From Gelidibacter algens (lineage in GTDB: Bacteria; Bacteroidota; Bacteroidia; Flavobacteriales; Flavobacteriaceae): a DNA stretch of 47,804 nucleotides. The notes below the pieces were generated by a model. The model was not told the DNA's origin, did no database searches, and saw only the letters and a list, made by a program, of their open reading frames with translations. Positions 16,496-47,804 of the stretch are shown here, one piece after another; position 1 is the first letter of the stretch; every line of letters begins with the position of its first letter. Position numbers and translations under genes: made by a program. Location of the stretch: the NCBI RefSeq assembly GCF_001678675.1, contig NZ_LZRN01000032.1, forward strand, positions 1 through 47,804, written 5' to 3'.

Positions 16496-16840
16496 TTAAA
16501 ATGGCATCGGATTTATAAAGATTGTTTCAGAAGATTCTTTCCATTGTATGGAAATTCTGGTGTATTTATGGACGCTATCATAAAAATTTATTGTGTACAA
16601 ATCTTTATCCTCCAGCCATTCCTTTTGTTCGATTTTGGGACGAAGTGGACCAACAGAACTATTCTGGGCGCAATTAACCAACATTTTTAAATAACGGTAA
16701 CACCGCATTTTGTTTGGAAACTCTGTAATAACATTTTGTAATAATAGGAAAGGAATGAAATCTTTTGGCTTGTATTCTATACAAGATCCTATTAATGCTT
16801 CCTTAATCTCGATTGCGGTATAATTACGGGGTTTCTTCAC
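16496..16840 (-). CDS. Hypothetical protein, last gene of the minus-strand operon
   Basis: The 114-aa soluble protein begins with KKPRNYTAIEIKEALIGSCI and ends with a beta-rich part (YTRISIQWKESSETIFINPM). I do not recognise the family. It lies 25 bases downstream of the XAC2610-like gene and is the last member of the minus-strand run. There is no signal peptide or membrane segment. It may be an immunity- or effector-type passenger, but nothing in the sequence shows this. Confidence 0.6.
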   Translation of the reverse strand: MKKPRNYTAIEIKEALIGSCIEYKPKDFIPFLLLQNVITEFPNKMRCYRYLKMLVNCAQNSSVGPLRPKIEQKEWLEDKDLYTINFYDSVHKYTRISIQWKESSETIFINPMPF

Positions 16841-16865
16841 TGGGAAATGAATGTTAATTTTATCT

Positions 16866-18016: not shown

Positions 18017-18693
18017 TTATTGGGTACATAAGTGGTTAAATTTTGCCTTAAAGTTTTCTCTTAAATCTTTTGTTGAAATCTTCTTATCAAATTCTGCCCC
18101 TTCAATTATAGCTTTTTTATGGTATGAAATAACCTTTTTTAAATCCTTCTGGAACTGGTCGCGGTAGATTATTTTTTCGCCATTTTCACACGCATAAGAT
18201 GAAATTTTTGAAAAATCTTTCCGTATAACCCAACCGTTCTTAGTCTGGGTTTCGTGGAGCAATCCGCATCTTACATCTTTGAAGAAATCCTTTCCGCAAA
18301 TAAGCTTCTCTTTAAAAGGCCTTCGCTTAGAAAAAAATAGAAATAAAAATAATCGACATTATTCAAGTAATTATTTTGAGAATTGCGAACGACGTTTTTT
18401 TTATGATGCCACTTGTACTTAATCAATCCATTTTTAGTTTCATTGCTATAAACCCAACCATTAATAAAGCTTTCAATAGTCTCAATAAGTGAGCATTGGA
18501 GGTTGACTACAGCAAAACCTTCCCCTTCATACTTTTCCATATCCAGAATTGACTGTATAGGTTCTAAATATCTTGTTCGGATGCGTTCTTCAAAAAAATG
18601 GAAGGCATTGCCCCAATTTTCGTTTTCTTCGGGTTTTAAAGTACAAGCTAACTCTTTCCAGTCTTTATCCGTTAATGTTCCTGCTACTATCAT
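18017..18693 (-). pseudogene. HEPN-like putative RNase gene, split by one-base frameshift
   Basis: Two adjacent frames (18271-18693 and 18017-18262) join into one protein of about 225 aa if one T is added to the T7 run (A7 at 18331-18337 on the plus strand). The join reads YFYFYFFSKRRPFKEKLICG, then DFFKDVRCGLLHETQTKNGW, a far better continuation than the present tail. The restored segment contains R-CGLL-H, an Rx4H motif as in HEPN ribonucleases, preceded by VNLQCSLIETIESFINGW, a typical HEPN helix. The start ATG overlaps the Pif1-like stop (ATGA). If the frameshift is real, the active-site part is lost. HEPN assignment is from motif and helical pattern only. Confidence 0.6.
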
Positions 18694-21359
18694 TGTTTGA
18701 TTTTTTTTATAATTTGCTCTATTAAAGCATCAGCCAAATATGGTGTAAAGCAGTTCCAAATTTCTTCACTAGCCTCCCATTTAGAAGCATATTTGTGTAT
18801 TAAAGGAATGCTATGATGGAGACCTTTATTATTACTTAGATTTCTAAAACTGTTTTTCCAAATTAAACTATGTTCGTATTTGGAAAGCATTTCTTCTGTC
18901 CAATTAATTGCTGGATTACCACTTAGTGTTTCCCAATCCCATTTATCTATATATTTGTCAATTAGCTTTATGGACCAAGGAAGTTCTGTGTTGTAAGATA
19001 AATTTTCCCAACAGAAATAATTTGAATATTTATTAATAAAGTTTTCACTCCAAGGCAAAAAATCCCTAGTACTTAATATTGTCCAGTTAAACTTATCCTT
19101 AAATTCTTCAATAAACTCCTCTGACCACGGCAGATTGGGATTATCACTTAGGCCGCCAGAAAATCCATATTCATCACCTTCCCAATCGAATTTATCGGCA
19201 TTATCTCTAATAAAGTCAATAGGTAGTTTTAAGTACGTTTTATGAGATAAAGAATAAAAAGATAACCTATCTTTCCATCTATAAACCATTTCAAGCGACC
19301 AGCTAATAGCGCTATTACTTGATAAAACTTCCCAGTTCCATCTTTCATAAAAATGTTCAATGAGTTCTTCAGACCACGGTAATGATTTGATGCTGCTAAG
19401 ATTTCTCCAGTTAAGTTGTTCTTTAAATTTATCAATAAGATTAAGTGACCAAGGTATAGCTTCATTAAAGCATAAACCGTTAAAATATTGTTTTTCAAAA
19501 TTGTGCTCAACTCCATTTGACCATTTCCATTTAGTTTTGAAAGTGTCAATTAACTCTTCAGACCAAGGCAAAGATGTATTTGAACTTAAAAAACCCCACG
19601 CCCATTTTTCTTCAAATTCTTGAATTATCTCTATAGACCACGGGATGCCTTTATTACAGCTTAGATCAACCCAGTCCCATTCATCAACAAATTCACTAAT
19701 TAATTCTATGCTCCAAGGAAGGTGTGGATTTTTGCTTAGAGTTTTATCTAATTGTGATTTAGGACTTGACTTCCATATTAACAGGTCCTTATAACGCTTT
19801 ATAAAGGTTGTTGACCAATCAACATCTTTATAGCTGCTAATTACATCCCAATTCACATAACCTCTATTTATTTCAATATAGTCAGTATCAATCTTTATTT
19901 CTTTTGATGGTGGTTTTGTTTTAATCTGATAAGTTTTTGTAGGCTCCAAAAAAGGATATTTTTGAAATAGCTCCCTACTATTAGGATACCATCTCCATAA
20001 TAGATCAATAATCAATTGAGGATTCTCTCTTGCGATGTCTATAATTAGTTTTTTATAGTAGACTTCAAGATTTTCTGAATTATGCTCAAAATCCAACACA
20101 TTTTGGCTAACCAATATATCCCAAATTGCCAACGGTCGCCTTAAATATAACCCTTGTAAACTTTTTACCCGGCTTAGGGCCACATAAGCCTGACCGCTGG
20201 CAAAGGTGCCGTTGTGGAAATCAATAATGAGTTTTTCAAAGGTGAGTCCCTGACTTTTATGGATGGTTATTGCCCAAGCTAATTTTAAGGGAAACTGTGT
20301 AAAAATCCCTTCTATTTTTTGTTCTATTTTACCCTTATGGCGGTCATAAGTATAGCTTAGGTTTTCCCAACTAACCTGTTGGACTGTCTCAATTCTATTG
20401 TTTTCCAGTTCAATTTTTATTTCATCATCTTTTAGGCTGTGTATTTTAGCAATAGTACCATTGTACCATCGTTTTTCTGAATCATTCCTAACACATACTA
20501 CTTGGGCACCCACCTTTAATTCTAAAGTTTTGTCAGTGGGAAATTTACTTTCTTCAAATGAATTGATAATTTGTGCTTCGTAAAAAAAACTTTGTGCAGA
20601 AAGTTTATTTAGTTTATTTCTATTGTGAAGATTTGCAGCATCGTTTCTTGTAGTTAGTGTTATTACAAATTCTTCATTAATTAAATTCTGGTTTGCCTCA
20701 ACTTGCTTATTAAAATCATCAATCTCTTCAGGAGTAATGGAAGCATCGCGAACTTTTTGTAAAAATTGGGTAAACTCTCTATCCTTTTGCCTGAATATTT
20801 TAGATAGTTCCACCACTGGAAGTTCTATTTCATTAAAAATATGCGCACTGAAAAAATATGGAGAATCATAGAGTTCGGCCATAATTTCCTTTTCTTTCTT
20901 TCCGGCAACTACTGGTTCGAGTTGAAATATGTCCCCAATGAATATCACTTGTTTTCCACCAAAAGGGATGGAAGGATTGTTTGTGTTTTTCCGCAAGGAA
21001 AAATCGATAGCATCAATCACGTCTGCACGCACCATTGAAACTTCATCAATGATAAGTGTATCCATTTTATTTAGCAATTCGCTTTTGACAGAATCTTTAG
21101 AATAAATAGTTATGTCAGCATCGCGGTGGAGCATTGGTCTAAAGGGAAAACCGAATAAAGAATGAATTGTTACGCCATTGGCGTTTATTGCGGCTATTCC
21201 TGTAGGTGCAACAACCACAAATTCTTTTTTACAAGTTTTTACAATATGTTTCAAAAAGGAAGATTTCCCCGTTCCTGCTTTACCAGTTAAGAAAAAAGAT
21301 TGGTTTGTATTTTCTATTAGATGGAGTGCTTGGTTAAAATCTGTTGTGGTGAATTTCAT
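18690..21359 (-). CDS. Pif1-like SF1B helicase with tryptophan-rich repeats
   Basis: This 889-aa protein has an N-terminal Pif1/RecD2-type helicase. Walker A is TGKAGTGKS (24-32), motif Ia includes VVAPTGIAAINA, motif II is LIIDEVSMV (about 105), and the C-terminal helicase motif is ITIHKSQGLTFEKLIIDFH followed by YVALSRVKSLQGLYL (about 365-405). The second half (about 500-860) is an array of about 11-12 repeats of some 25 residues, with pattern LPWSxELIxxFxxxWxWxxLSxNxx. Such arrays suggest a solenoid for protein or nucleic-acid binding. It lies 76 bases after the RelE-UvrD gene and overlaps the HEPN-like gene by 4 bases. The same WDWxxLS signature recurs in the protein at 46283. Confidence 0.85.
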   Translation of the reverse strand: MKFTTTDFNQALHLIENTNQSFFLTGKAGTGKSSFLKHIVKTCKKEFVVVAPTGIAAINANGVTIHSLFGFPFRPMLHRDADITIYSKDSVKSELLNKMDTLIIDEVSMVRADVIDAIDFSLRKNTNNPSIPFGGKQVIFIGDIFQLEPVVAGKKEKEIMAELYDSPYFFSAHIFNEIELPVVELSKIFRQKDREFTQFLQKVRDASITPEEIDDFNKQVEANQNLINEEFVITLTTRNDAANLHNRNKLNKLSAQSFFYEAQIINSFEESKFPTDKTLELKVGAQVVCVRNDSEKRWYNGTIAKIHSLKDDEIKIELENNRIETVQQVSWENLSYTYDRHKGKIEQKIEGIFTQFPLKLAWAITIHKSQGLTFEKLIIDFHNGTFASGQAYVALSRVKSLQGLYLRRPLAIWDILVSQNVLDFEHNSENLEVYYKKLIIDIARENPQLIIDLLWRWYPNSRELFQKYPFLEPTKTYQIKTKPPSKEIKIDTDYIEINRGYVNWDVISSYKDVDWSTTFIKRYKDLLIWKSSPKSQLDKTLSKNPHLPWSIELISEFVDEWDWVDLSCNKGIPWSIEIIQEFEEKWAWGFLSSNTSLPWSEELIDTFKTKWKWSNGVEHNFEKQYFNGLCFNEAIPWSLNLIDKFKEQLNWRNLSSIKSLPWSEELIEHFYERWNWEVLSSNSAISWSLEMVYRWKDRLSFYSLSHKTYLKLPIDFIRDNADKFDWEGDEYGFSGGLSDNPNLPWSEEFIEEFKDKFNWTILSTRDFLPWSENFINKYSNYFCWENLSYNTELPWSIKLIDKYIDKWDWETLSGNPAINWTEEMLSKYEHSLIWKNSFRNLSNNKGLHHSIPLIHKYASKWEASEEIWNCFTPYLADALIEQIIKKIKQ
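18775..19860 (-). repeat. Coding region of the W-rich 25-residue repeat array
   Basis: About 11-12 degenerate repeats with core PWSxxLIxxFxxxWxWxxLS are encoded here. Clear copies include LPWSIELISEFVDEWDW, IPWSIEIIQEFEEKWAW, LPWSEELIEHFYERWNW and LPWSIKLIDKYIDKWDW. DNA identity between copies is low, so the array is old or under selection for protein, not a recent tandem duplication. Confidence 0.8.
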
Positions 21360-23515: not shown

Positions 23516-26500
23516 TTAATCTTCTAATTTAAAATTATCCGGACTATATACTTTGTATCCGTTATTAATAAATGTTTGTTTTGATTCTTCATCAAATGGA
23601 TTGATAACAATTTTCTTAGAGTGTGCACCCAGCTCTGCCGAAGCAATGATGATATCGCTTTCAATGAGATCAAAGTCATACTCGGTATTAAACTCAATAT
23701 TTTCCTTAAAAAATAGCCTAACAATAACGTGAAGTTCTTCATCAAAATTTGATAGAATTTCATTACTTACCTCATTTTTAGGGGCGACATCTTGGGGTTT
23801 GATTTCAGCATCCAAAGATTCAACAGTTATGTTGTGAAATTGTGTTAGATTATAAATTTTCCAAAATTTTATCCAGTTTTCTTTATCCCAAAACGTTACA
23901 ACCTTAAATCCGCCAAAAGCTTTTAATAAAAAATCTTGAGGGCGAATAAACACTCCAAATGTGGCTTCTTCCTTAAATTTTATGCCATCGGCATAAACAT
24001 AATTAGTAAGTCCTTGGGGTGCTTTTTCAATTTCAGAAACACTTCTATGATTTAATATAGCTTCAGTATTATCAGGACTATAAAACGTACCCATCATTTT
24101 GGACTGTGAATTAAATAGCGCTAAACTTGACCAAATCTTTAAATCAATATTGGTGAGTGGATTAATAATTAAATGGAAGAATCTTGTTATATTATTGTTG
24201 AGAAATATGTCCGAAACATCATAGCCTCTGAAAGAAGGATGCTTTAAGAAAAACTTGTCTTTAATAACTTTCTCATCTTGCTTTAATCCTAGAATATCTT
24301 TTTCGTTAAACATATTTTCAGAAAAATCTCCCCAAGTAAATATCCATTGATTATACCTTCCGGAATCTATAATGTTATTTCTAATTGCTAAGTCAGATGG
24401 AAATCTCGAGTGATTTTCACTAGCGTGAAATTCATAACCGTCTAGGTAAATGGCAATAGATTTTAATTTTTCAATATCATCTAAAGACCATTCTTTGTCA
24501 TTTATTGAGATACGAACACAAGTCATTACAAAATCTGGACGTGTCTTTAACGTTACTCCTTGAAGGACTCTCCCTAAATTTTGAGGATATATTTTATAAA
24601 CAATTTCACAATTTCTATAGATTAATTTCAGTCTATAAATTTTAAGTCCTTTTTCATTATCTGGTTTAAAAGATGAGCCTGTATATCGGTCTGATAATGT
24701 TTCTAATAAAGTAACGAACTTCAGTTCTAAATCAGACTCTTCATTGTTTGCAAATGTGCTTACGTTTTGTAGGCTCTCAATGCTATTCCATTCATCTGCT
24801 TTTTCGATAATATCTGAAAATAATTCCTGAGCTTCAGACCTGCTTAAAATTGTTCTTTCATATTGGTTTCCATATGTATATATACATCGATAACAACCAT
24901 CTTTACCCTCTTGTTTACAAGAACAAAAAGCAATTCTTTCATAAGCTTTTTTAAGAATCTCAGTAAATACCTCGGTGTCGAATAATTTGGATAGATAACC
25001 TGTGCCTCCTGGTATAGTTTCATAGAAAACCAAATACTTGTCTTTTCTATTAGAAGCTTTATTAAAAATCTCGTTTTCTCTTATCAAGATATGGTCTGGT
25101 CTTCCTTTAAAATATTCTTTGAGTCCTAGTTGTAAACCAGCTTTAAATAGAGCGATTCTTTCCTCAGACCTAAATTCTTGAATAGGCAACAAAATAGATA
25201 ATGCTTCTGTATTGAACTTTCTATACAAATAGATTTCATTAAATACGTCATCGATGGCATCGTCATATACAGCTTCTCTATTCGAACAATATGGAAAGTG
25301 GTATGCTCTTCGCCTATCGCTTAACTCCCTAGCTGTTAAAGGTCTTTCCGTTGACTTGCCGCAGGTTTTACAAACCACAAAACCTACTTGAGGATGTTTT
25401 TCACCGTTTATTTCAATTTCTCTTGTGCCAAAGAAACCTTCTTCTCTAATTCCTGTATTGATTTCTAAATACTCAACATCTTGAAAAAATTCTATTCCAA
25501 AAGGAACTCTTTTTAAAACGTGAGCTCCCTGAGAGGAAGATTGGTTAATTTTTATATGAACTGATTTTTGATAAAATTTTCGTTCTCTATCATCTGAGGA
25601 ATCTGTTATTTTAGAATCCTCTTTGTCATTAACAGACAAAACCCCTTGAAGTTTAACTAGTACTTTACGATTATTCAAACTAGACCAAGAACCGTGACCA
25701 CAAACAGGACATTGAGTTTGATGTTCTTCTTCAACATCAATCTCTTTCTTTACGTGGTCACAATTACTACAAAAACGATGTTCTTCATAATCTTCTTGAG
25801 ATTTTATTTCTAAGCCTTCCGACTTTAATTTATAGCCTTGAGAATAAAAAGTATTTGCAGGCGCAAGTTCCGTTAAAGCAGAAGAGCTCGGCCTTACTAT
25901 TTCACTAAAATCTTCATATTTATATTCAGTCTTGCCATCAACTTGCTTTTTCCTTTTTATTTGAGCATTAAGAGTTACACCAGTTTCAGGAAAAGCATAG
26001 TTTGGAAGTACACCAACATTTGTAAGATACTCTATTACATTCCGCCTATGGATGTTATAAATTGCACTTGACAAAGCTCGTTTTTCATTCTTTAAAATAA
26101 TTGTTTCATTACCAGTTTCTGGCAGGCTTCTCAATCTTTTATTTACATCCTTCACTTTTTTTGCGTAATACTCTAGCTCAGCAAGTAAATCTTTATGAAT
26201 TACAGTTAATCGGTTTACTAATCTCCCTGAACTTAAATCTTCGAATATTGATGACAAACTATTAGAATTTTCTCCTAACTGGTCCTTATATTGGTCAACA
26301 AATGCCTCGTATAAAAGAGTTTTATTTGATTCGATATAAGCTGCAATTTTTTGAAACAGGAAATTAGGATCACCAGGTCTGAGTGATTTAACATTTAACA
26401 TTCTCACCAAAGGTGGAATTTTATTTTCTTCAGGATCTAAGGTTGCCCAATTATCAAAACAAAAAGCCATAAAATGTCTTTTCAAAATATCTTTTGCCTC

Positions 26501-29836: not shown

Positions 29837-32210
29837 TTACTGTTCTTTTTTTAGTTGTAATGAAATTATATAATCTGATGGCGAAGCATAAAACAAATCA
29901 TTGTTATCAAAATCAACATCTTCATTAAAATAGTCTTTTAAAATATGTACTTGTCCATCAATGACCAGAGCTATCTCAAAGTCCTTTCCTCTCTTAATTG
30001 CTTCCTTTTTTTCCGACCTACTTAAATGAAAGTAAGTACCATTAAATGACTTAACCTCTAAGTATTTCCAGTTTGGGTTATCATTCAATTTGTAACGTAT
30101 ATCGTAATGTTTATTATCTGATTTATCTGATGTATTGGAAAAACTAGAAACCCATTCCACCTTTGCAACGTCCTCACTTTTCATTAGTGAGTTAAATACA
30201 ATTTGCTCCGCTTTCTTTCCAGATAATTTGTTTCGCTTTCCAACTTTATCATTGTGATTCCAACTACCATTTTTACTACTTTTACCATTGGAAAAAGTAT
30301 GGTTTAGTTTTGTTGAAGAACTGTATATAATTTCTCCAGTTACTTCTTCTTCAGGATCACTATTGTCATCCTTTTCATTACTTTCTATAGCAGCCGTTAA
30401 ATAAGAAATAATTTTATCGTCATTACCCTTAAAGTAGAAAAGACTTCTAATTTCACTTTCTTCAATATCTACCTCGTTAATCTTACTTTCCTTAAGCAGT
30501 GATTTATATTCAGGTAGAATTTTTATCAAAGATACTTCTGCACTTTCCTTTATTTGAATTCCAAACTCCTTGCTCACTACTTGTTTAAGCACATCTAGAT
30601 AGTTTAGCTCTAATTCAAATCTGTTATTTAGCAGCGAGTTTTCAATAACTTGTCCATATATGAGGTTTTCATACTTTTCTTGAAAGTTAATAAGGTGCTT
30701 TTGCAGTTCTTTATTTTGATTTAAGTGCTTCCAAAGGGATGTATTGAAATCTTCTTTTAAGTCGTTTCTTTTATTTTCAAACTGTGCTTTATGATAATTT
30801 ATAATTCCATTAAAATCATCCTCAAACAAGTGAGTAATTGGGATTTCTAATTCACTAGTTATTGCTTTCAAAAAATCGATGGATAGTTGGTCATTAAAAT
30901 CAGTATAATCGATATTCTTAAATTTCTTCGAAATGGTATAGCCAAAATCATTAAGTAATAACTCCGCTAATTCATCTGAATCCTTTACTGTAGCAGGAAA
31001 CTCCTTATCTCCATATTCATAAACTCTAGACCAAAAACAAATTTCATCCTTAGAGATTCCAAGCAACTCTAAAGCCTTGTTGTAATGTTCAGTTAAAGAA
31101 TTGACCTCAATTGTAAAAATGGTGTCTTTGAGACTATTTTTGTCTTTAAAGATTGTTCTGTAATTATCTTTGTGCTCATTCACTTTAAACAACACACATA
31201 GAATTTCAGCAAAAGCTTCACATATTTTTGGTGTGTCTTTTACAATTTCTAAAGTGGTGTTTTGTTCTACACATAAATAAAAGCCTTGACTTGTTGGGTT
31301 GGGTAAGAATTCACCTGAAAGAAGGTTCTTAGATTCCCCATTTTCAATAGCATACCTTAATGAAGAAACGAGTCTTATATCAACTTTCTTCAACTCATCT
31401 GCTTCATTTTTTTGAATAGAGTCCTTAATTGAACTTAACCTGTATGTTAGGATATATGGCTTAATTTTTTCTAACCACTTTTGAAACTTATCATTGACAA
31501 CACTTTCACGTACAGAATCTTGGTAAATCTGTAAATCAACATCTTTGAATGTTTTTACCCCAAAATATTTCGAGATTTGACTTTCCCCAGACCTTTTCGG
31601 AAAATCAAAAACCCAAAAATCTTCAGCAATTTTTGAAGGCAAAGTTGAATTGTCACTGTAGTATACTTTCTCAACAGATATGTACTCTTTCTTATTACGC
31701 TTCTTTGCTAATAGTTTATAATCTTTAACCTTGTTGGCATAGTCAAAATCCTTTTTAAGTTTAAAAAAAACTGAACGCAAGATTGTAAATTTTACGTGCG
31801 TATTTTTCTTCGGGATTTATACGTTCTAATTCTTGTAATATGCTATACACTTCGTCAACCTCTAAATCGTTAAATAAACGACTCACTTTAAGCTGATGCA
31901 ATACATCTATTATTTTATTTTCACTAATACTTAACGCTTTGAAAACCTGATGTTCAAAGTTTATGGAATTATAGCCTAGTTCTTTAGCAAAATCTAGGTC
32001 TGCAATAAATTTGGTGTTTAAACCATTTAAGTAATTTTCTGCTACTTGATAATAAATATAAGAGGGATTGTCATTTACTGGTGTCACCTTATTATGAAAA
32101 GAGTAACTAAAGGTATCTACATTGTCAAAACTCAATTGTCTTGATATATAACCGTCTGAAATTATCCAAGCAACTAAAAATTTACTTATTGAAAAGTTAA
32201 GGGTGATTAA
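29837..32210 (-). pseudogene. DUF3883 second half of a GHKL-DUF3883 protein, without start codon and frameshifted
   Basis: Two frames (31761-32210 and 29837-31780) join if one T is removed from a T8 run (A8 at 31763-31770 on the plus strand), reading NLAFSFFKLKKDFDYANKVK across the junction. Neither frame has a normal start: the first contains no ATG at all, and the second contains none before the LMKSEDV segment about 530 codons in. The last 120 residues hold a DUF3883 domain (KKAEQIVFNSL, then HYDIRY, then YLEVKSFNG), a PD-(D/E)XK-like nuclease fold with candidate E, D and E-x-K residues. Such domains usually end long GHKL-ATPase proteins, so this is most likely the rest of the gene at 32302. 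The long open frame means the damage is recent or is a sequence error. Confidence 0.65.
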
Positions 32211-39239: not shown

Positions 39240-42080
39240 TTACCCGTTATAAAAAACCGCTAATACTCTTAGGAAGGGTTCATTTTCTAATTGGAAGTAT
39301 TCATTGTAAAATGCATCCATTTGATTTTTTACATAATTTACTTCACTCTGCCTCTTCTTTTTATAAAAAGAGCCTCCTCCATTTTTTTCATCTCCAAACT
39401 TAATTTCCATTTGTCGCTCGGATGCGCTTAGCCAATCATTCAGTTTCTTTTGATAGCGTTCTAATTTATCTTCCATTTTATCCTCCAGATCACCTTGAAT
39501 TTTTAAATCATAAAAAAGTTTAGCACTTTTCACTGCTGCCGGAAGTAGTTTTTTAATATTATCAAGTTGTTCAGCAGTTGTTTCAAGTTCAGGCAATGTG
39601 TCCTTAAGGCGGTATTGATTTATAAACTCTTCAAATTCTTCCAAATTTCCCACGCTTGACTCTCCAAATGATTTGCCTATTACGAAGGTTTTGGAAAAAA
39701 TAGGTTTTCCCTGTTGATTAGATGTTATTCCTTGAAAAACAAACCAAGCTGTATTTTTAGGAAGTGGCTCTCTTAGTCTAGCCACTAAAGCTTTACCGCG
39801 ATCTATTTGTCCAAGCAACTTGTATTGCATCCATTTTGCAATAGGATTAAGGTCGTATAATAGTTGAAAGTTTGGCCATTCATTTTGTTTCTTTCTCGCT
39901 TGAATTATTGCATTTTCAACGATATCAACATTTGTAGTAAGATTGAATGTTTGATTTGGTTTTGGAAAAGCTTCTTTAGGCATATCGTACAAAACACCTT
40001 TAGATGAAAGCTCTTCAAATTGTTCAATTTCTAAAACTTTGTCGTTACTATCTATATTAATTAAAGGGATGAGCCTATCGTCTTTCGATTTTAATTCATC
40101 AATAAGCGAAGCATAATAGCTAAAATCATCTTCATAAAACGAAGCAAAACCTTCGTCGATTTTCATTTGAGCTTTAGTAGCAGATGAATCTTCAGTCAAT
40201 GCACTTAACCAATCATCGTCCACCGTATTTTCTTCATTAGAATCCAAAAGTGACGGGTCATTATTGGCAATCGCTTTTTCTACTAATTTTGATTCTTGCT
40301 GTTGGTCATAAAAGCCCATAACACTCCCAGCATCTCCCAAACTTTTATGTACTTCTTCTTCCTTTTCTTTTAAACGCTCTACAATTCTAATATCTCCTTG
40401 AACATCTTCACTTTGAGATTCAGCAATAAGGTAATAGATGAATGGTGTTTTGGTTTGACCAAAACGGTCTATTCGCCCATTCCTTTGATCTAAAGTTATA
40501 ATTGACCAAGGAATATCGTAATTAAACATTTGATTACAGAAGTAGTGAAGATTCACACCTTGACTTCCAGCATCAGAAGCAAGAAAAAGCCTAATTGTAC
40601 TATCTTCTTTAGAAAAATCTTCTAAGATATCTTGCTGTTGTGTGTCCGTGAGGCTTCCGTTAAATTGAACTACCGCGTTATCGTTTAGCTTGAAGTCTTC
40701 TTTCAGATTCTTTTCTAATTCATTTAATGTAGCTCTGCGCTCTGCAAAAATGATTATGCGCTCATCACTCTTTTTCCCTTTCCAACCCATCTGGTCTAGT
40801 TTAAAGAGAAACTGGTTATACTTAGAATCACTTTTTTGAGCCACAATTTTTTCGAGAACGTCTTTCAGCTCTTCTAGATGTTCTATTACACCATCTTCAT
40901 CAATCGCTTTATCTATTCTTTTAATTACGGTTTCTAAACACGCTTTAGGCGATGACATATATGCCTTGAATAAACCTATGGAAAAAAGCAATGCTCCGAA
41001 CGTAGAATTTCCATCACTCTCTTCCTGTGCAACAGCTTTAAATTCTTGAATAATTCGTAAAGCTTCTTCTTCATCAGGATTTAAAGGGCAATCTATTTTA
41101 CTTGTTATCCTGTCTCTAAAGGCATCACCAACTTCATCCTCAATATCCTTTTTAAACCTACGAACATATAATGGCTGAATATCTTCTTTTGTAAATTCGC
41201 CATCATAAGGTATTGCCGTAGGATCTAACATACTTATTAAATTTGCAAAATTCTCACGTTTACCGTTGTGAGGTGTCGCAGATGTCAAAACCATTGCTTG
41301 CGTTCTCTCTGATAAAAATTTAGCTAATCCACCTCTCTGAGATGCAACATTGGCAACCGTATGGCATTCATCTATTGCAACGATATCCCATTTTACTTTT
41401 TCTAAATAGTGCCTGAATTTTGCATTGTTTTTCAACGTATCGATAGATACTATAACCTTGTCATAGTAATCGAATGGATTTTTGTTTGATGGTATTTCTG
41501 TTTTAATTCTTGCTATTCCCTGACTATCTAATCTAACTAATGGAATTGCAAAACGAGCCCATATTTCCTGCTGAAATTGAGCAAGAATAGATTTTGGTGT
41601 AACTACTAAAACCTTCTTTCCCTTTCCACGTCTGATTAATTCCGCTAAAAAAATGCCAACTTGAACTGTTTTACCAAGCCCAACAGCATCTGCAATTAGG
41701 ATTTTTGGTTGTGGCAATGAAAGTGCCTTTATAGTAGATTCAAATTGATAATTAGCACCTCTTATTGCCGCTTTATGAGCTATTTCAATATGTTCAGAAT
41801 AATGCGAAGAGTTTCTGAATATTGTCTCAAGAAACAACTTTGTTTGCCTATAATGGGTAGAGTCGTCAGCCTGAAGTTCGGTTTCTTCTGGTTGTATTAC
41901 TCGATAGTTTTCTAATCGTAAATCAAATTGAAAACTTTGACCGTATACTAATTCAGAAATTCCTTCGACATCAATGATGTCGCGTTCTCTGTTGGTAACT
42001 ATAAAATCTTCTCCTCTTAAGTTAATCCTTATTCCAGGGGTAACATTAAGGCTTTGGTTGGTTAAAGTATCGTTGCTCAA
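39240..42080 (-). CDS. DrmD-like SNF2-family helicase
   Basis: The 946-aa protein is a SNF2-type SF2 ATPase. Walker A is ADAVGLGKTVQ (about 130-140), motif II is IVAIDECHTVANV (about 235-245), TSATPHNGKRENF is motif III-like, and the C-terminal core has FLASDAGSQGVNLHYF and LDQRNGRIDRFGQ (about 500-545). A coiled, charged C terminus follows. A SNF2 helicase directly before an LEPAMG-type methyltransferase is the drmD-drmMI arrangement of class 1 DISARM. The start is TTG at 42080; no in-frame ATG lies near. The gene begins 17 bases after the XRE regulator. Confidence 0.82.
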   Translation of the reverse strand: MSNDTLTNQSLNVTPGIRINLRGEDFIVTNRERDIIDVEGISELVYGQSFQFDLRLENYRVIQPEETELQADDSTHYRQTKLFLETIFRNSSHYSEHIEIAHKAAIRGANYQFESTIKALSLPQPKILIADAVGLGKTVQVGIFLAELIRRGKGKKVLVVTPKSILAQFQQEIWARFAIPLVRLDSQGIARIKTEIPSNKNPFDYYDKVIVSIDTLKNNAKFRHYLEKVKWDIVAIDECHTVANVASQRGGLAKFLSERTQAMVLTSATPHNGKRENFANLISMLDPTAIPYDGEFTKEDIQPLYVRRFKKDIEDEVGDAFRDRITSKIDCPLNPDEEEALRIIQEFKAVAQEESDGNSTFGALLFSIGLFKAYMSSPKACLETVIKRIDKAIDEDGVIEHLEELKDVLEKIVAQKSDSKYNQFLFKLDQMGWKGKKSDERIIIFAERRATLNELEKNLKEDFKLNDNAVVQFNGSLTDTQQQDILEDFSKEDSTIRLFLASDAGSQGVNLHYFCNQMFNYDIPWSIITLDQRNGRIDRFGQTKTPFIYYLIAESQSEDVQGDIRIVERLKEKEEEVHKSLGDAGSVMGFYDQQQESKLVEKAIANNDPSLLDSNEENTVDDDWLSALTEDSSATKAQMKIDEGFASFYEDDFSYYASLIDELKSKDDRLIPLINIDSNDKVLEIEQFEELSSKGVLYDMPKEAFPKPNQTFNLTTNVDIVENAIIQARKKQNEWPNFQLLYDLNPIAKWMQYKLLGQIDRGKALVARLREPLPKNTAWFVFQGITSNQQGKPIFSKTFVIGKSFGESSVGNLEEFEEFINQYRLKDTLPELETTAEQLDNIKKLLPAAVKSAKLFYDLKIQGDLEDKMEDKLERYQKKLNDWLSASERQMEIKFGDEKNGGGSFYKKKRQSEVNYVKNQMDAFYNEYFQLENEPFLRVLAVFYNG

Positions 42081-42097: not shown

Positions 42098-42370
42098 TTA
42101 TACATTATCGATTGCAAGCCTTAAAGCTTCTTTTGTAAACTTCTCACTTTTAACAGTTTTCAAAATTTTATCTGCTAACCACATCGTAAGTAAATCCTTT
42201 TTTGGCTGCTTAAAAATTTTTGCTAAAACATCTATATGTTCTCTTTTAAATGAACGCTCACTGCGTTCCATTTTACTTAACATTGCTTGGTCTATTTCCA
42301 ATTGAGCTGCTAATTGCCGCAACAATACATCATTAGACTCTCTAAGTGCTCGTATGTGTTCGCCTATCAT
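42098..42370 (-). CDS. XRE-family regulator heading the operon
   Basis: The 90-aa protein has a clean HTH at about 5-60: IGEHIRALRESNDVLLRQLA, AQLEIDQAMLSKMERSERS and IDVLAKIFKQP. The C-terminal 30 residues are helical (MWLADKILKTVKSEKFTKEA). Small XRE proteins of this form often precede restriction-modification and defence genes in Bacteroidota and act as autoregulators. It is the first gene of the roughly 26-kb minus-strand run. The region upstream holds a direct repeat that could be its operator. Confidence 0.88.
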   Translation of the reverse strand: MIGEHIRALRESNDVLLRQLAAQLEIDQAMLSKMERSERSFKREHIDVLAKIFKQPKKDLLTMWLADKILKTVKSEKFTKEALRLAIDNV

Positions 42371-42486: not shown

Positions 42487-45400
42487 ATGAGAAGTGTTCC
42501 AACCATAAGATTGAATAAAGTGTTGAGAGAGTTAAATTTATCGTTAGATAAGGCTATATCTTTCTTAGACGGGAAAGGTCTTGAAATTGAAGCCAGACCT
42601 ACAACTATAATAGATGATTCAGTATACAATTTATTATTAGACGAATTTTCTAAACCAAAAAATAGCATAATCAACGAACCTAAGTCTATTATTCAGATTG
42701 CAAGCCCACCTATCAATCACGATGCTTTAGAACTGAACAAAAATATACGTATTCCAGATTTTGATTTTGATGAGCAAGAAGAATTAGAAGAAGAAAATCA
42801 AACTGAATATGAAAGAAACAAAAGAGTTTGGCATAAATATATAACTGCACAAGAAAAAATTATTGACTACCGAAGTCTCCCTGTAGCTATTAACCCTAAT
42901 CAAAAGTATACGTTGGAGGGCAACACTTTAAAGATAGAGGTAGATCAAGATATTTTCAAAAAAATCTTTAAGGATGAAGTTGAGACTATTTTTAAAATAG
43001 ATACTTATGATTTTGATAGCGATCATATACTACAAGACTTAGAAATAACGGAGCAAATTAATATCGAAGACTTAAAAAATTTAAAGGAAAGTGCTTCGTC
43101 AAAGTATATCGAGTTCAATGAACATCCAATTATTGAAGGTGTTATCAGAGAGCGAAACAGCAAGTCAAAAGGTTTAGAAAAAATCATAGGAAGAATATCA
43201 AGAAACTTTCTTTTCAATAAAGAAGGACTTATACTTCTTACACAAGCAGAGAAAGAAAAAGTAGACATTTTGAAAAATGTTTCTTTTGAAAAAAATGCTG
43301 GAGCTGTTTTTCCTTTATTCCCCAATATTAAATTTTTACTTAGTCTTATCTATAAAGAAAATTCTATTCAGGAAACTGGTAATAGATTCACCATATTTAA
43401 CGGAAAGATTCATAATAATATCGAAGCCTATTTAGAGAAGGAAATTGGGTTAAAGCGGAAGCGTTTTCTTTTAATTTTTCAGTTTCCGAAAAATTCAGGA
43501 CTTGAAAAAAAAATAAAAGATTTAGAAAAATTCAAAGGTATCGATTTACCAACACCAGAAAATGATGCGATTAGCTTTAGGATAGAGGTTAATAGTAGCA
43601 ATTTAAATGATACTGAAACGCGAAACTCCATTAGTTTAGAAGAACAGTTATCACATTTTAAAAGAGAATACCGAAGGATAGATCAAATTATAAGAAAGTA
43701 TTTCCCTAAAAAATCATATCGAACGAATTGGAATGTAAAATATAGTTACGATGGGAAGCAACTCAGAAAATTTTACTCAAAAAATAGCGATATAGAACTA
43801 AAATTTTGGGATAGAATTTATCCTGACATACACGGTGAAGAATTTCAAATAAGTAGTGACAAGTCAACGCTTTCTTTTGATTTTCAGGATTTTGAAGGCT
43901 TAGAAAGCAAAAAACAAAGCTTAAGGGCTTACAATTATTTTTACCTTGAAGATTATGGAACGGATCACAAGTTTAAGTTCAACATAAAATTTGAAACAGG
44001 TCTTCACGATCTTCAGAAGAAACTAAAGATTAATGCAGAATCATTATCAACAAGACTAATGTTGAATGGTCAAGAGCTACGGTTTCATAAACATTATAAA
44101 CCAGGCAACAAAGGATTTGTACGGGACTATTTAACAAATGTAATCCGTGAGTATATTGAAGACGAAAAATACGATGTTTACATTGATGATACGTTTAAAG
44201 AAAAGTATCTCTGCGTTGAAAATTTTGAATTAAAAGTAGAGCAAGAAGAAGAAAAACTTTCGAAACTGAAAAGAGAAAGTTTTTATTATGGTGATAAAAA
44301 GAATAAAAAGCCACTAGGTAGATTACAAAAGGTAGATTATCCTAGCCTTGAATTCTTTGTGGAAGACGAGAACATTGAAGATCTAAATAAATCATTATTA
44401 AAACAGGAGATAAAAGCTGTCTTTCCAGATTTAAAAGGCGAAAGAGATAAAATTTTAAGACTTACAGACACAGTAAATAAATTAGAATCTGAGGTTACTC
44501 TTCCAAATAATAATAGCAGAAATTTTCTTTTTGACTCGTCAATGGCTAAGCCTATTCACGATGTAGATTCTCTTCTGGATGAACAAGGAAATCAATGGAG
44601 ACTTTTTGAGGAACAAATGTTATCTCAACATTTAAATACATCACAAAAGCAAGCGATACTAAAAAGTTTACACGCTCAGGATTTAATGCTTATACAAGGA
44701 CCACCCGGAACAGGCAAATCCACTGCCATTGCAGAAATTATATGGCACCATATTCTAGAAAACCCCAAACAAAAAATACTTCTTACCTCTGAAACAAATC
44801 TTGCAGTGGATAACGCAATGGATAGAATTAAAACTGGTTCAAATAATATTGTGAAACCTATACGGTTTGGAAACGAAGATAGACTGGCCTCAGAAGGATT
44901 ATTTTATTCCTATGAAACTGTGGTATCATTCGGTAGTGATTTAAGTTTTAAAGAACCTAACATAGTGGAGCATTGGGTTGAAAACGTGGCTAAAAGAGTT
45001 GGTAATGATGAAAATATAAATAACGCATTAAATGATTGGAGGTCTTACCTTAATGGCAAAGACAAAGAAGTGAGATCTATTTTCACGCAACAATATTTAG
45101 AAAATGTAAACTTGATTGGAGCAACTGGAAGCTCAATGGGTAAACTTAATTCTGAAGGACGCTATACTTCGTTTTTTCATTCGTACTTAAAGGTTTTCAA
45201 TAAAGGAGATTACTTTCCAAAAATTGATTATAAGAAATGTAATGGCATTGATATTGTTTTTGATACAATCATTATGGATGAGGCCAGTAAAGCCACACCA
45301 CCTGAACTAGCATTACCAATTATATATGGTAAAAAAGCAATTATAGTTGGAGACCATAGGCAATTGCCTCCAATGGTTGATGGAGAAGAAATAAAAGACA

Positions 45401-46293
45401 CCTTGTACTCAATAGGCGAAAAGGAATTGGCAAGCACTCTGGAAAGAGATGAGTTTAAAAAATCTCAGTTCGAAAATTTATTTCAGAACCCAAATTTAGA
45501 TTTAAGCTTAAAAGGTACTTTTAATACTCAGTATAGAATGCACCCGGCTATAAATGATGCTGTGTCTCAGTTTTACATAGATGATGGCGGCTTACATTGT
45601 GGATTGCCTCTTGACGAGAAAGATCACCAAAGTTTTTTAGAACCATCTTCTAGGTATCACGGTCTCAACTATAAAAATATTTTAACGCCAGAAACACACA
45701 CGATGTGGATTGATGTAAATGGACCTGAAATAAAAGAAGGTACATCTAGATCTAACATTGGCGAAGTTGAGGCTATTGACTCCATACTATATTGCATCAA
45801 AAACAGCGACGGATATCCAGAATATACTAAATGGCTTTCTACACAACCTAAAGAGGAAAGTGAAATAGGCATTATTAGTTTTTATGGGAAGCAAATCAAT
45901 CATTTGAATAAAATGATTGAAAAAAATCATAAAGACATATCTACTAGGCTAAGTACAGTTGATAAATTTCAGGGAATGGAGCGGAATATTATCATTGTTT
46001 CAATGGTGAGAAGTGATAAGATAGCAGCTACTACTGATCAATCACCAGATTTCTCTCTTTATGAAAGCAAAGGGTATCCTGAGCAATCTAGCTTGGGTTT
46101 TGCAGAATCTCCTAATAGGCTTAATGTAGGTCTTTCTCGCGCAAGAAGATTACTCATTATCGTTGGAAATAAGGATCACTTTTGTAAAAAAGAAATATAC
46201 CAGAATGTTTTCAACACTATAAGTGATTCTACAAACGGAAAAATAATTTCTTCCAATATTTTCAAAAAGACCATTACGACAGATGAGCAATAA
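42487..46293 (+). CDS. Upf1/Dna2-type SF1B helicase with IF2N-like N-terminal domain
   Basis: The 1268-aa protein opens with IRLNKVLRELNLSLDKAISF followed by IEARPTTIIDDSVYNLLLDE (about 7-52), which closely resembles the IF-2 N-terminal (IF2N) fold of Bacteroidota. A long acidic and helical region follows (about 85-700). The C-terminal helicase has Walker A LIQGPPGTGKSTAI (about 735), motif II TIIMDEASKATPPEL (about 930), motif III VGDHRQLPPMVDG (about 955), NTQYRMHPAIND (about 1013), VDKFQGMERNIIIVSMVRS (about 1160) and RLNVGLSRARRLLII (about 1210). This is the Upf1/Dna2/Nam7 type. It overlaps the next gene by 11 bases. RNA or DNA substrate is not decidable. Confidence 0.85.
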   Translation: MRSVPTIRLNKVLRELNLSLDKAISFLDGKGLEIEARPTTIIDDSVYNLLLDEFSKPKNSIINEPKSIIQIASPPINHDALELNKNIRIPDFDFDEQEELEEENQTEYERNKRVWHKYITAQEKIIDYRSLPVAINPNQKYTLEGNTLKIEVDQDIFKKIFKDEVETIFKIDTYDFDSDHILQDLEITEQINIEDLKNLKESASSKYIEFNEHPIIEGVIRERNSKSKGLEKIIGRISRNFLFNKEGLILLTQAEKEKVDILKNVSFEKNAGAVFPLFPNIKFLLSLIYKENSIQETGNRFTIFNGKIHNNIEAYLEKEIGLKRKRFLLIFQFPKNSGLEKKIKDLEKFKGIDLPTPENDAISFRIEVNSSNLNDTETRNSISLEEQLSHFKREYRRIDQIIRKYFPKKSYRTNWNVKYSYDGKQLRKFYSKNSDIELKFWDRIYPDIHGEEFQISSDKSTLSFDFQDFEGLESKKQSLRAYNYFYLEDYGTDHKFKFNIKFETGLHDLQKKLKINAESLSTRLMLNGQELRFHKHYKPGNKGFVRDYLTNVIREYIEDEKYDVYIDDTFKEKYLCVENFELKVEQEEEKLSKLKRESFYYGDKKNKKPLGRLQKVDYPSLEFFVEDENIEDLNKSLLKQEIKAVFPDLKGERDKILRLTDTVNKLESEVTLPNNNSRNFLFDSSMAKPIHDVDSLLDEQGNQWRLFEEQMLSQHLNTSQKQAILKSLHAQDLMLIQGPPGTGKSTAIAEIIWHHILENPKQKILLTSETNLAVDNAMDRIKTGSNNIVKPIRFGNEDRLASEGLFYSYETVVSFGSDLSFKEPNIVEHWVENVAKRVGNDENINNALNDWRSYLNGKDKEVRSIFTQQYLENVNLIGATGSSMGKLNSEGRYTSFFHSYLKVFNKGDYFPKIDYKKCNGIDIVFDTIIMDEASKATPPELALPIIYGKKAIIVGDHRQLPPMVDGEEIKDTLYSIGEKELASTLERDEFKKSQFENLFQNPNLDLSLKGTFNTQYRMHPAINDAVSQFYIDDGGLHCGLPLDEKDHQSFLEPSSRYHGLNYKNILTPETHTMWIDVNGPEIKEGTSRSNIGEVEAIDSILYCIKNSDGYPEYTKWLSTQPKEESEIGIISFYGKQINHLNKMIEKNHKDISTRLSTVDKFQGMERNIIIVSMVRSDKIAATTDQSPDFSLYESKGYPEQSSLGFAESPNRLNVGLSRARRLLIIVGNKDHFCKKEIYQNVFNTISDSTNGKIISSNIFKKTITTDEQ

Positions 46294-47804
46294 GATCCTT
46301 TCCATATTTAAAACAAACTGGGTAGTTAAATCTATTCCATTTGAAATCCAGTACCGTAAGGCAAGTTCAACTACTGAAACTGATAAAATACTCTGTACTA
46401 TAATTAGAGAAAATTGCGGCAATATCTCGTATAATGAATTTGCAATATTATTGGGCTTTAATATATCAACCATAGAAGGTGTAATAAAATATGGTGACCC
46501 CGCTGAGAATAAAATTTTTGACTTTTATTTAAAACGTCTCGAAGATTTCCATTTAACAGAATCACGAAATAATATTATTAAGCTAACAAATGCAGGTTTA
46601 GACTCATTAGAAACAGGTCTTAAATACAAATACTTCGCTGCGCGAATTACTGTATTAGAAAATATAACAGCTAATGACAGTGATGATAGATTTTTTTCTT
46701 TTAAAGATGCATTTGGTTTGACTAAATCTCTGACAGCAGTAACTGAATTGAATTCAATTGTTGTTATCGAACGTGACTTTTTATTGGAAAAGATAGATTT
46801 TCAACTTTTTCAAAGTGATGAATTTGAAGGAGAAGCTTTAAATTTTAAAATGCTAGAATCTAAGGAAGCATTTAATGAATTCGATATAAACACATTTTTA
46901 GTGGTAGATGAAAATCAGACGATGTCGATACAGTTTGAGCATTCTGATAATGAGTCTACTTCAATAGACAATTTGGTCAAACAAGATCAAAATTCCGATC
47001 TATACAGAGCACTTATAAGAAAAGGGGAATTCTATTATTTCTTGAGCCTTAATAAGACGATAGATTCAGAAATCTTAATTTTATATTTAGACCTATGGGA
47101 TTGGTCACAACTTGTCGAAAACCCAAATGTAAATTGGAGCGATAAGCAAGTTTTTGAAATCGTCAGCCAAAATGCGGATAAAGGAATATGGAGAGTAATT
47201 AGCTCTAACGTAGCTCTGGAAATTCTTGTTGAGCACTTAAAACAATATCTCTATTTCTGGGATTGGTCAATATTATCAAATAGATTTAGTGAAGCTGTAA
47301 TAAGAGCAAGCATTACAGAATATCCTTGGGATTTTGAGATCCTATCTGGAAAGGACTCAGACTTAGTTATCGATTTACTTCAAAATAAAGAATTAAATGA
47401 TGAGAATTGGGACTGGTCATATTTATCTGTGGAACTACCAGAGAGTTTTATTAGAAAAAACATAGAACAATTTCCGTGGGACTATTTTACCATTACTCAG
47501 AATAGATTTAGCATTTTTAAGGATATCTTTAATGAAGCTTTTAAAAGCGACTCCTATGATGCCCTAAAGTTTTTGTGGGATTGGAAATATATCTCATCGG
47601 AAATTAATCTAAACACAGTTTACAAGCATCTAGATATATTTGCACCATATATCAGTTGGGAAATCATTCTAAAACGATTTTTCACTAATGAAAGTATCAT
47701 AGAAACATTTTTAGCTGACAAATCTTTTCAAGAAAAGTTAAAAAATCTACTGCCAAAAAACATTAGCGTTACTACCCAAGAATATTATTTCACAAAAGAA
47801 TTAG
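46283..47804 (+). CDS. Winged-helix protein with WDWxxLS repeats, cut by the right edge
   Basis: An ATG at 46283 within the end of the helicase gene opens a frame that stays open to the window end (507 codons, no stop). The first 120 residues look like a winged helix (DKILCTIIRENCGNISYNEF, then NNIIKLTNAGLDSLETG). A middle part of unknown fold (about 130-260) follows. From about residue 270 the protein has repeats with LYLDLWDWSQL, YLYFWDWSILS, YPWDFEILS, NWDWSYLS and FLWDWKYIS. These match the repeat signature in the Pif1-like protein of the opposite operon. The overlap implies translational coupling to the IF2N helicase. The family is not recognised. Confidence 0.75.
   Translation, partial: MSNKILSIFKTNWVVKSIPFEIQYRKASSTTETDKILCTIIRENCGNISYNEFAILLGFNISTIEGVIKYGDPAENKIFDFYLKRLEDFHLTESRNNIIKLTNAGLDSLETGLKYKYFAARITVLENITANDSDDRFFSFKDAFGLTKSLTAVTELNSIVVIERDFLLEKIDFQLFQSDEFEGEALNFKMLESKEAFNEFDINTFLVVDENQTMSIQFEHSDNESTSIDNLVKQDQNSDLYRALIRKGEFYYFLSLNKTIDSEILILYLDLWDWSQLVENPNVNWSDKQVFEIVSQNADKGIWRVISSNVALEILVEHLKQYLYFWDWSILSNRFSEAVIRASITEYPWDFEILSGKDSDLVIDLLQNKELNDENWDWSYLSVELPESFIRKNIEQFPWDYFTITQNRFSIFKDIFNEAFKSDSYDALKFLWDWKYISSEINLNTVYKHLDIFAPYISWEIILKRFFTNESIIETFLADKSFQEKLKNLLPKNISVTTQEYYFTKEL

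What the first reader, a model, noticed from the sequence alone, without database searches (positions are those of the whole stretch)
16496..47804. Composite five-helicase defence-like island combining DISARM-like and Druantia-like parts
Two divergent units share one regulatory gap. The minus unit encodes XRE, DrmD-like SNF2, DrmMI-like methyltransferase, GHKL ATPase/DUF3883, DruE/YprA-like DUF1998 helicase, RelE-UvrD, Pif1 with repeats and HEPN-like proteins with almost no gaps. The plus unit adds an IF2N-Upf1 helicase and a repeat protein. Known class 1 DISARM has drmD, drmMI, drmA, drmB and drmC; here the DrmA/DrmB pair is replaced by one giant DUF1998 helicase, no PLD nuclease (DrmC) is seen, and five helicases of different families are present. 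DISARM-related arrays around YprA-type helicases have been proposed by others; whether this is one of them or new I cannot check. The system-level call is inference from domains and packing.
Basis: partly seen in the sequence, partly recalled or inferred. Interest (0 to 1): 0.9.

Follow-up and report, generated by a model that had tools for sequence, protein, structure and literature searches.

The report
ARMADA II defence operon with cargo slot
The island's core is a recently described bacterial anti-phage system (ARMADA type II) carried by a conjugative element, but here an exchangeable extra gene sits inside the operon and the part of its methyltransferase that probably recognises DNA differs sharply between near-identical copies.

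Summary
The sequence observation is largely right; the "one composite five-helicase system" reading is only partly right. Window 42370-21436 (minus) is XRE-ArmA-ArmB-[TmtA]-ArmC-ArmD, i.e. ARMADA type II (Bell et al. 2025 preprint, PMC12458937). The four Arm genes recur in four named Flavobacteriaceae at 80-97% and in other phyla at about 30-36% identity. Pif1 with its small ORFs, and the divergent Upf1 gene, are not part of the conserved unit; the Upf1 gene heads a helicase / repeat-DarT / Macro module that runs onto another contig.

New here: (1) a cargo slot between armB and armC, filled in 10 of 11 Flavobacteriales loci read (TmtA/Tiamat-family gene in 6, AbiE pair in 2, AlbA-like in 1, GHKL plus Upf1-like in 1), against 1 of 11 read outside the order; (2) slot TmtAs form one clade whose branching conflicts with the ArmC tree, so the cassette moves between backbones; (3) the three Flavobacteriales loci without ArmD all have GHKL plus Upf1-like helicase in the slot; (4) a block of ArmB behind NPPW differs sharply between otherwise near-identical systems, in Flavobacteriaceae and independently in E. 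coli: the likely target-recognition domain. The window's own TmtA is frame-broken. No function was tested.

The parts
42098..42370 (-). XRE-type regulator, first gene of the operon
   Evidence: HTH_3 6.5e-06; kept at 82-99% next to armA in Bizionia, G. sediminis, Maribacter and Nonlabens
39240..42080 (-). armA: BrxHII/DrmD-like SNF2 helicase, 946 aa
   Evidence: 87-97% in four close relatives, 34% in the E. coli plasmid copy
34449..39233 (-). armB: PglX-like adenine methyltransferase, 1594 aa, NPPW at residue 955
   Evidence: Eco57I 2.4e-21; PADLOC PDLC03614 2773 bits; NPPW
34820..36370 (-). divergent block of armB (about residues 956-1470), probable target-recognition domain
   Evidence: nucleotide identity to three relatives falls from 86-95% in the armB part before it to 51-60% in its middle and is 86-88% after it; protein identity among five systems 43-66% in the block
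29837..34437 (-). tmtA in the armB/armC cargo slot: GHKL ATPase with C-terminal NOV_C/DUF3883; frame broken, three ORFs 34437-32302, 32135-31761, 31780-29837
   Evidence: PADLOC TmtA 608/55/428 bits on the three pieces; intact copies of about 1510-1540 aa in relatives; frame breaks in two places
23516..29830 (-). armC: YprA-family helicase with MZB/DUF1998 and C-terminal Vsr/MTES_1575-like nuclease motif, 2104 aa
21436..23514 (-). armD: UvrD helicase with N-terminal RelE/ParE-like domain, 692 aa
   Evidence: UvrD 4e-21, ParE_like 0.0021; RelE-type chains among weak PDB matches
5328..15856 (+). conjugation genes of the carrier element; the same stretch lies just beyond armD in Bizionia and (as far as read, to 7224) in G. 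sediminis
   Evidence: TraG P-loop 6.8e-60; blastn synteny 70-78%
18690..21359 (-). Pif1 helicase with WDW-type repeats; not part of the conserved unit
   Evidence: PIF1 5e-34; no match in the relatives' loci searched
42487..46293 (+). Upf1/MkoA-like SF1 helicase with IF2N-like N-terminus; separate module
   Evidence: AAA_12 2.1e-36; MkoA 326 bits; no full-length relative in the four closest ARMADA genomes
46283..47803 (+). start of the repeat protein of that module; contig C93 carries on with DarT, then a Macro gene
   Evidence: 22% to a DarT-bearing protein of Hymenobacter next to a 41% Upf1 relative; 38-base end overlap; DarT 1.2e-13, Macro 1.1e-13

Best explanation
The conserved unit is an ARMADA type II operon carried as cargo of a Bacteroidota conjugative element. 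Shown by sequence: gene content and order, catalytic motifs, recurrence, the divergent ArmB block, and the B/C cargo slot. Inferred mechanism: ArmB methylates host DNA at a motif set by its exchangeable target-recognition domain and so marks self; DNA lacking the mark is engaged by ArmB with the BrxHII-like motor ArmA; the YprA helicase ArmC then loads, unwinds and cuts through its C-terminal Vsr-like domain, with ArmD (RelE-UvrD) as second motor. In Flavobacteriales the operon also carries an exchangeable module between armB and armC. Most often this is TmtA, a GHKL ATPase ending in a DUF3883 (PD-(D/E)xK-like) domain, which most likely acts as an add-on ATP-gated clamp and nuclease on DNA that the core has engaged. 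In this window that add-on is frame-broken while XRE and the four core genes are open, so the core may work alone, as Maribacter's copy with an empty slot suggests.
For: ARMADA II gene set and order. Recurrence as A-B-C-D in E. coli, Microvirga, Nostoc, Pseudanabaena. Motifs conserved in 19-23 aligned copies; NPPW of the E. coli copy is at N971, the residue the preprint mutated with loss of protection. Divergent ArmB block in Flavobacteriaceae and E. coli. TmtA in the slot in 6 of 11 Flavobacteriales loci. In one 397-genome family sample: ArmC in 6, TmtA in 8, both in 4, hypergeometric 1e-6. GHKL motifs and E...HYD...E.K kept in at least 7 of 8 intact TmtAs; DUF3883 is called a novel REase domain in PMC3710099 (passage).
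Against: No phage or methylation assay. The window copy gets no Pfam hit in the ArmC C-terminus (2 of 22 copies hit MTES_1575, best 0.0036), no PDB profile hit, and the AlphaFold2 model was poor (pLDDT 39). For the ArmD N-terminus the best PDB rows are two Dot/Icm-type proteins (0.03); RelE and YoeB chains follow at 0.3-0.6. The slot is empty in Maribacter and in 10 of 11 loci outside Flavobacteriales, and unrelated genes (AbiE, AlbA-like) also fill it, so TmtA may be a passenger. Window, Bizionia and G. sediminis carry nearly the same element and are not independent, so 1e-6 overstates; counting loci with closely similar ArmC once, TmtA is in 4 of 7 groups (grouping).
Confidence: 0.78

Rival explanations
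1. TmtA and the other slot genes are independent defence genes that use the armB/armC junction only as a landing site and expression slot (nested defence island); they do not work with ARMADA.
For: Unrelated fillers at the same place: AbiEi/AbiEii in two nearly identical loci of one unnamed genus (G142, G882), AlbA-like in Nonlabens; slot empty in Maribacter although its ArmA and ArmC are 95-96% identical to the window's; 4 of 8 TmtA genomes in the family sample had no ArmC match; Tiamat is listed as a defence system of its own in Pseudomonas islands (PMC12629846 passages).
Against: The five intact slot TmtAs are one clade apart from the 4 stand-alone ones (support 100/99); same strand and near-zero spacing; GHKL/TmtA-type proteins in 7 of 11 loci.
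Confidence: 0.45
2. One five-helicase composite defence system as proposed by the first reader, Pif1 and Upf1 included.
For: Physical packing in the window; shared repeat type between Pif1 and the plus-unit protein; in Aulosira a MkoA-like helicase lies about 3 kb beyond armD, with one more superfamily I helicase gene between.
Against: Pif1 without match next to ARMADA in the loci searched, Upf1 without full-length relative in the four closest ARMADA genomes; in Hymenobacter the Upf1/DarT pair stands without an annotated ARMADA gene in the 21.5 kb read; Aulosira's partner protein shows no similarity to the window's repeat protein (E <= 1). Odds raised from 0.06 to 0.08 on re-check because the Aulosira distance is shorter than I had first written.
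Confidence: 0.08
3. The armB block differs by fast divergence under selection in place, not by exchange of a recognition module.
For: No donor of the block was identified; intermediate identity occurs (66% window-Nonlabens; 76-80% in single bins of two E. coli copies).
Against: Abrupt edges next to 95-100% identical protein sequence in E. coli and next to 86-95% identical DNA in the window's relatives; only 173 of 519 E. coli genomes matching ArmB cover 80% of it against 518 of 518 for ArmC.
Confidence: 0.12

Closest known systems
ARMADA type II (Bell et al. 2025 preprint, PMC12458937; outline and passages seen)
   Same: Four genes, order A-B-C-D, domain types, carriage on mobile elements; an E. 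coli copy in the collections has NPPW at N971 as in the tested ArmB
   Different: Here an XRE gene leads, a TmtA-family gene sits between armB and armC, and the carrier is a conjugative element. The preprint calls the type II order strict; words beginning DUF3883, GHKL, Tiamat, Bacteroid, TRD and methylat do not occur in its main text; its supplements were not read
DISARM class 1
   Same: DrmD-like and DrmMI-like pair
   Different: No separate DrmA/DrmB and no PLD-type DrmC among the ORFs scanned
Druantia III
   Same: DruE-like fused YprA helicase
   Different: No DruH or other Druantia partner in the rows shown for the ORFs scanned; extra methyltransferase and two more helicases
Tiamat (TmtA; PADLOC model, original paper recalled, not read)
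   Same: GHKL ATPase with DUF3883; intact Bizionia copy 1138 bits over nearly the whole model
   Different: Sits inside an ARMADA operon and forms its own clade; broken in this window
MORC/paraMORC GHKL ATPases in restriction-modification operons (PMC2292703, passages)
   Same: GHKL ATPase joined to helicase, methylase and nuclease genes
   Different: Other GHKL families by their description; no test against them was run here

Membership tests
ARMADA type II | BrxHII-like SNF2 helicase (ArmA) before ArmB | tested here: met
ARMADA type II | PglX-like methyltransferase (ArmB) with NPPW | tested here: met
   (PglX models themselves match only weakly, best 1e-4)
ARMADA type II | unsplit YprA-family helicase with DUF1998 (ArmC) | tested here: met
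   DEAD, Helicase_C, MZB on one 2104-aa protein; conserved CxxC clusters
ARMADA type II | C-terminal active Vsr-type nuclease on ArmC | tested here: inconclusive
   invariant E48, D112, D143-G144, H148, D159, R163 in 22 C-termini; MTES_1575 in 2 of 22, none for the window copy; no PDB hit; model too poor
ARMADA type II | GajB/UvrD-like helicase (ArmD) after ArmC | tested here: met
ARMADA type II | RelE-like domain at the N-terminus of ArmD | tested here: inconclusive
   ParE_like 0.0021, below its cut-off; RelE 1wmi 0.32 and YoeB 0.58 not the best rows
ARMADA type II | strict order A-B-C-D | tested here: met
   order kept, but with a gene inserted between B and C
ARMADA type II | ArmC falls in the ARMADA II clade of the YprA tree | not tested
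   my tree had no ARMADA I or Druantia reference
ARMADA type II | phage protection | not testable with these tools
   -
DISARM class 1 | separate DrmA and DrmB, plus DrmC PLD protein | tested here: not met
Druantia | DruE with its type-specific partners (e.g. DruH) | tested here: not met
   DruE-like hit only; no partner in the rows shown for the ORFs scanned (at most 25 rows per protein)
Tiamat | single GHKL + DUF3883 protein | tested here: not met
   window copy is broken into three ORFs; an intact relative meets it
Mokosh | MkoA helicase with PLD partner (recalled) | tested here: not met
   Upf1 protein 326 bits to MkoA, but its partner carries repeats and, on contig C93, DarT

The most novel reading that the evidence does not exclude
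Flavobacteriales have a distinct ARMADA II subtype in which a GHKL/DUF3883 protein of a dedicated TmtA clade is a real fifth subunit, exchanged between backbones as a cassette, and in which a GHKL plus Upf1-like helicase pair has taken over the place of ArmD; ARMADA specificity is set by a swappable ArmB domain. (Probability lowered from 0.35 to 0.32 on re-check, because G278 outside the order also shows no ArmD although its junction is bare.)
Probability: 0.32. Interest if true: 0.72.

Novelty: new variant of a known kind. Interest (0 to 1): 0.58.

Why it matters
ARMADA was described in 2025; with the terms I searched its preprint's main text says nothing on how it tells self from phage DNA. 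A block of high divergence behind the methyltransferase's catalytic motif, between otherwise near-identical systems of two phyla, points to where specificity lies and is directly testable by methylome sequencing. The in-operon cargo slot gives a natural experiment: near-identical ARMADA backbones with TmtA, with other genes, or with nothing.

Tried and rejected
Five-helicase system: set aside for lack of co-occurrence, with the Aulosira neighbour told as the result on the other side. DISARM and Druantia membership: rejected on partner genes. Type IIG restriction enzyme: PADLOC files ArmB there with 2773 bits, but its relatives sit in ARMADA operons; I treat the label as a database name. HEPN small proteins: no support. 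Mokosh for the plus unit: partner does not fit.

Led nowhere: AlphaFold2 of the ArmC C-terminus with five rows (pLDDT 39, so no fold search was run); PDB profile search of the same; paper searches for DUF3883 with defense and helicase (1 paper), Tiamat, GHKL/sacsin, DarT/BREX. Two papers of the library hold both 'armada' and 'antiviral defense array' since 2025.

Rows dropped before counts: G1004 (distant, 25-29%, only pieces of ArmA and ArmB); G215 (contig end, no A/B seen) and G344 (C and D, but no A/B in the 36 kb read) from slot counts; Cylindrospermopsis (order C-D-A-B) from slot counts. Of 27 plasmid records with ArmC-like matches I read 6. Aulosira's ArmA, B and C were taken from annotation positions; only its ArmD was compared with blastp. 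Five of the 11 loci outside the order (G246, G392, G207, G270, G278) are of one genus. Fisher 0.006 for ArmD against slot Upf1-like helicase (3 of 3 without ArmD, 0 of 8 with) counts related loci as independent and leaves out G278, which has no ArmD match in the 8.9 kb read beyond ArmC and a bare junction.

Full report
What is there. One search lists the ORFs; Pfam and PADLOC give, on the minus strand from 42370 down: an XRE regulator, an SNF2 helicase, an Eco57I-type methyltransferase, a GHKL ATPase and a NOV_C/DUF3883 piece, a 2104-aa DEAD/DUF1998 helicase, a ParE-like plus UvrD protein, then Pif1 and five small ORFs without Pfam family. On the plus strand stands an AAA_11/AAA_12 (Upf1-type) helicase and the start of a repeat protein. 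The left part holds Bacteroidota-type conjugation genes (TraG P-loop 6.8e-60). The window is one whole contig of a 140-contig genome. The genome searched as G624, which has the contig length and ArmC position of Gelidibacter sediminis DSM 28135, is marked as the same genus, so the window is most likely a Gelidibacter.

The unit. The ARMADA preprint (PMC12458937; outline and passages read; supplements not read) describes type II as BrxHII-like helicase, PglX-like methyltransferase, YprA-like helicase and UvrD helicase with N-terminal RelE-like domain, in that order. The window has these in that order; the RelE and nuclease domains are only weakly supported here. A scan for the YprA protein found four near relatives in named genomes: Bizionia, G. 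sediminis and Maribacter at 96-97% and Nonlabens at 81%. All four have ArmA-D with XRE at the head. Further samples, own genome counted where drawn: ArmC at E <= 1e-50 in 10 of 395 phylum genomes, 6 of 397 family genomes, 4 of 299 genomes of the genus of G142 and 4 of 395 order genomes; these samples overlap.

Edges. Blastn homology with Bizionia and G. sediminis runs from window 42434 to 21433, in G. sediminis with a break at the ArmB block. In both relatives the same conjugation stretch (70-78%) begins about 1.9 kb beyond armD; in the window 5.6 kb with Pif1 and small ORFs lie between. Upstream, both relatives have a shared set of ORFs that look like mobilisation genes by eye (no family search was made), the window the Upf1 gene. 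ARMADA is thus cargo at one site of one conjugative-element family with variable neighbours. Pif1 had no match in the loci searched with it; the Upf1 protein had no full-length match in the four closest ARMADA genomes. Against this stands Aulosira, where a MkoA-like helicase lies about 3 kb beyond armD.

The slot. Between armB and armC, Maribacter has a bare junction with flanks 86% and 91% identical to the window. Window, Bizionia, G. sediminis, G649, G792 and G1351 have a TmtA-family gene there, alone or with others; Nonlabens has an AlbA-like protein; G142 and G882 an AbiEi/AbiEii pair; G662 a GHKL protein, a 785-aa protein and an Upf1-like helicase. That is filled in 10 of 11 Flavobacteriales loci, TmtA in 6 (order name by the named members; Maribacter's place is recalled). 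Outside the order the junction is bare (206 bases or less) in 10 of 11 loci with a readable junction (G246, G392, G207, G270, G278, G284, Pseudanabaena, Microvirga, Aulosira, E. coli L077); Nostoc has an annotated 186-aa ORF. Five of these 11 are of one genus. In three more E. coli records armB and armC overlap by a base. The three Flavobacteriales loci without ArmD (G649, G662, G792) all hold GHKL plus Upf1-like helicase in the slot, and their genomes have no ArmD relative at 1e-5; the eight with ArmD have no such helicase there. Several of these loci are close kin, so p = 0.006 is only a guide. Against a strict swap: G278, outside the order, also has no ArmD match in the 8.9 kb read beyond ArmC, with a bare junction.

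TmtA. With the intact Bizionia copy as query, 8 of 397 family genomes have TmtA. Four (window, G624, G484, G649; 53-100%) are in ARMADA slots; four (27-28%) are in genomes without an ArmC match in the same sample. The tree (the window's broken copy left out) makes the five intact slot TmtAs one clade (100/99). Inside it G649 joins Bizionia and G. sediminis (100/100) and G792 joins G1351 (100/99), whereas in the ArmC tree G649 and G792 stand together to the exclusion of G1351 and the Bizionia group (99/98): the cassette has moved between backbones. Long branches in the ArmC tree are flagged by the tool. Motifs LEL.QN..D, IGNKGLGFRS and, at the C-terminus, E...HYD...E.K are kept in at least 7 of 8 aligned copies. 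PMC3710099 calls DUF3883 a novel REase domain (passage), and PMC2292703 proposes that other GHKL ATPases loop DNA in restriction-modification operons (passages). In the window the gene is broken in two places, a cluster near 32.2-32.3 kb and one near 31.77 kb; against Bizionia and G. sediminis no other frame-changing indel was found in the operon, the armB variable block having been left out of that check, though armB itself is open. Decay and assembly error cannot be told apart here.

ArmB. Outside TmtA, identity along the operon to Bizionia, G. sediminis and Maribacter is mostly 84-99%, but falls to 51-60% in the middle of the stretch of about 36370-34820. In protein terms residues 1-955 are 87-98% identical to the window's in four relatives, 956-1470 are 45-66%, the tail 79-86%; ArmA, C and D are 81-97%. 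Pairwise, the five copies are 43-66% alike in the block. In E. coli ArmC covers at least 80% of the query in 518 of 518 matching genomes, ArmB in 173 of 519; many of the rest cover 79% and are O157-type clones, and at least one low ArmB row is a short match in gspL. In three E. coli copies compared, ArmB is 96-100% identical up to about residue 960, falls to 31-80% in bins between 960 (one copy) or 1080 (two copies) and 1440, and is 95-100% after 1500, while ArmC and ArmD are 98-99%. NPPW is at 955 here and 971 in E. coli, so the block begins at or up to about 110 residues behind it. That place and the edges fit a target-recognition domain, as known from PglX (PMC11341690, listing and start of abstract only). 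The ARMADA preprint's main text has no word beginning TRD or methylat.

How it likely works. Shown by others: in E. coli, Walker-motif mutants of ArmA, ArmC and ArmD and the NPPW mutant of ArmB lose protection (one ArmD and one ArmB mutant only partly), and defence is direct. Inferred: ArmB marks self; ArmA, ArmC and ArmD process unmarked DNA; ArmC cuts, like the related DruE which engages ssDNA-containing DNA (PMC13192584 passages). TmtA is either an add-on subunit or a passenger; I weigh these nearly equally, with the add-on slightly ahead because of the dedicated clade and spacing.

The plus unit. Upf1 and repeat protein have a homologous pair on a Hymenobacter plasmid (41% and 22%), where the second protein ends in DarT (7.2e-11). 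The window's last 38 bases equal one end of contig C93, whose main ORF has DarT (1.2e-13) and is followed by a Macro gene (1.1e-13). The frame appears broken near the joint. In Nostoc sp. C052 an Upf1-like gene followed by DarT-annotated and ADP-ribosylglycohydrolase genes lies inside a BREX cluster. This is a separate helicase-DarT module next door.

Noticed in passing
46283-47803 and contig C93 of the same genome (L111): Upf1-like helicase, WDW-repeat protein with DarT domain, and Macro-domain gene form a module; a homologous helicase/DarT pair is on a Hymenobacter plasmid and a similar set lies inside a BREX cluster of Nostoc sp. C052.
   Followed up: partly
42487-42700 (+) and L047 4687-5436 (-): The Upf1 helicase starts with about 55 residues like the start of flavobacterial IF-2 (50-64%), and a slot GHKL protein of G649 has such a stretch too (69% to the Upf1 one; a second by eye). 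Pfam's IF2_N model hits neither. Why defence ATPases wear an IF-2 head is unexplained.
   Followed up: partly
18690-21359 (-): The Pif1 C-terminus carries the same WDW-type repeats as the plus-unit protein (blastp 2e-6) and matches the Hymenobacter repeat-DarT protein and contig C93.
   Followed up: no
L098 9480-15759 (Aulosira laxa plasmid): A MkoA-like helicase with a neighbour that looks PLD-like by eye (Mokosh-like) lies about 3 kb beyond armD of an ARMADA II operon in a cyanobacterium, with another superfamily I helicase gene between.
   Followed up: partly
L075 18336-23090 (Microvirga plasmid): A protein annotated DUF3883 lies close to ARMADA II; only a short weak match (22%, 2e-8) to a slot GHKL protein was found.
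   Followed up: no
G278:C39 24000-32884 (L058): An ARMADA-like A-B-C locus outside Flavobacteriales without an ArmD match in the stretch read, and with a bare B/C junction.
   Followed up: no
34449-39233: PADLOC labels this ArmB family as type IIG restriction enzyme-methyltransferase (PDLC03614, 2773 bits), so ARMADA operons may be filed as restriction-modification by that database.
   Followed up: no
L112-L114: In three E. coli records ARMADA II follows directly on a STY4851-family gene and a DEAD/DEAH helicase, presumably Druantia III as the preprint describes.
   Followed up: no
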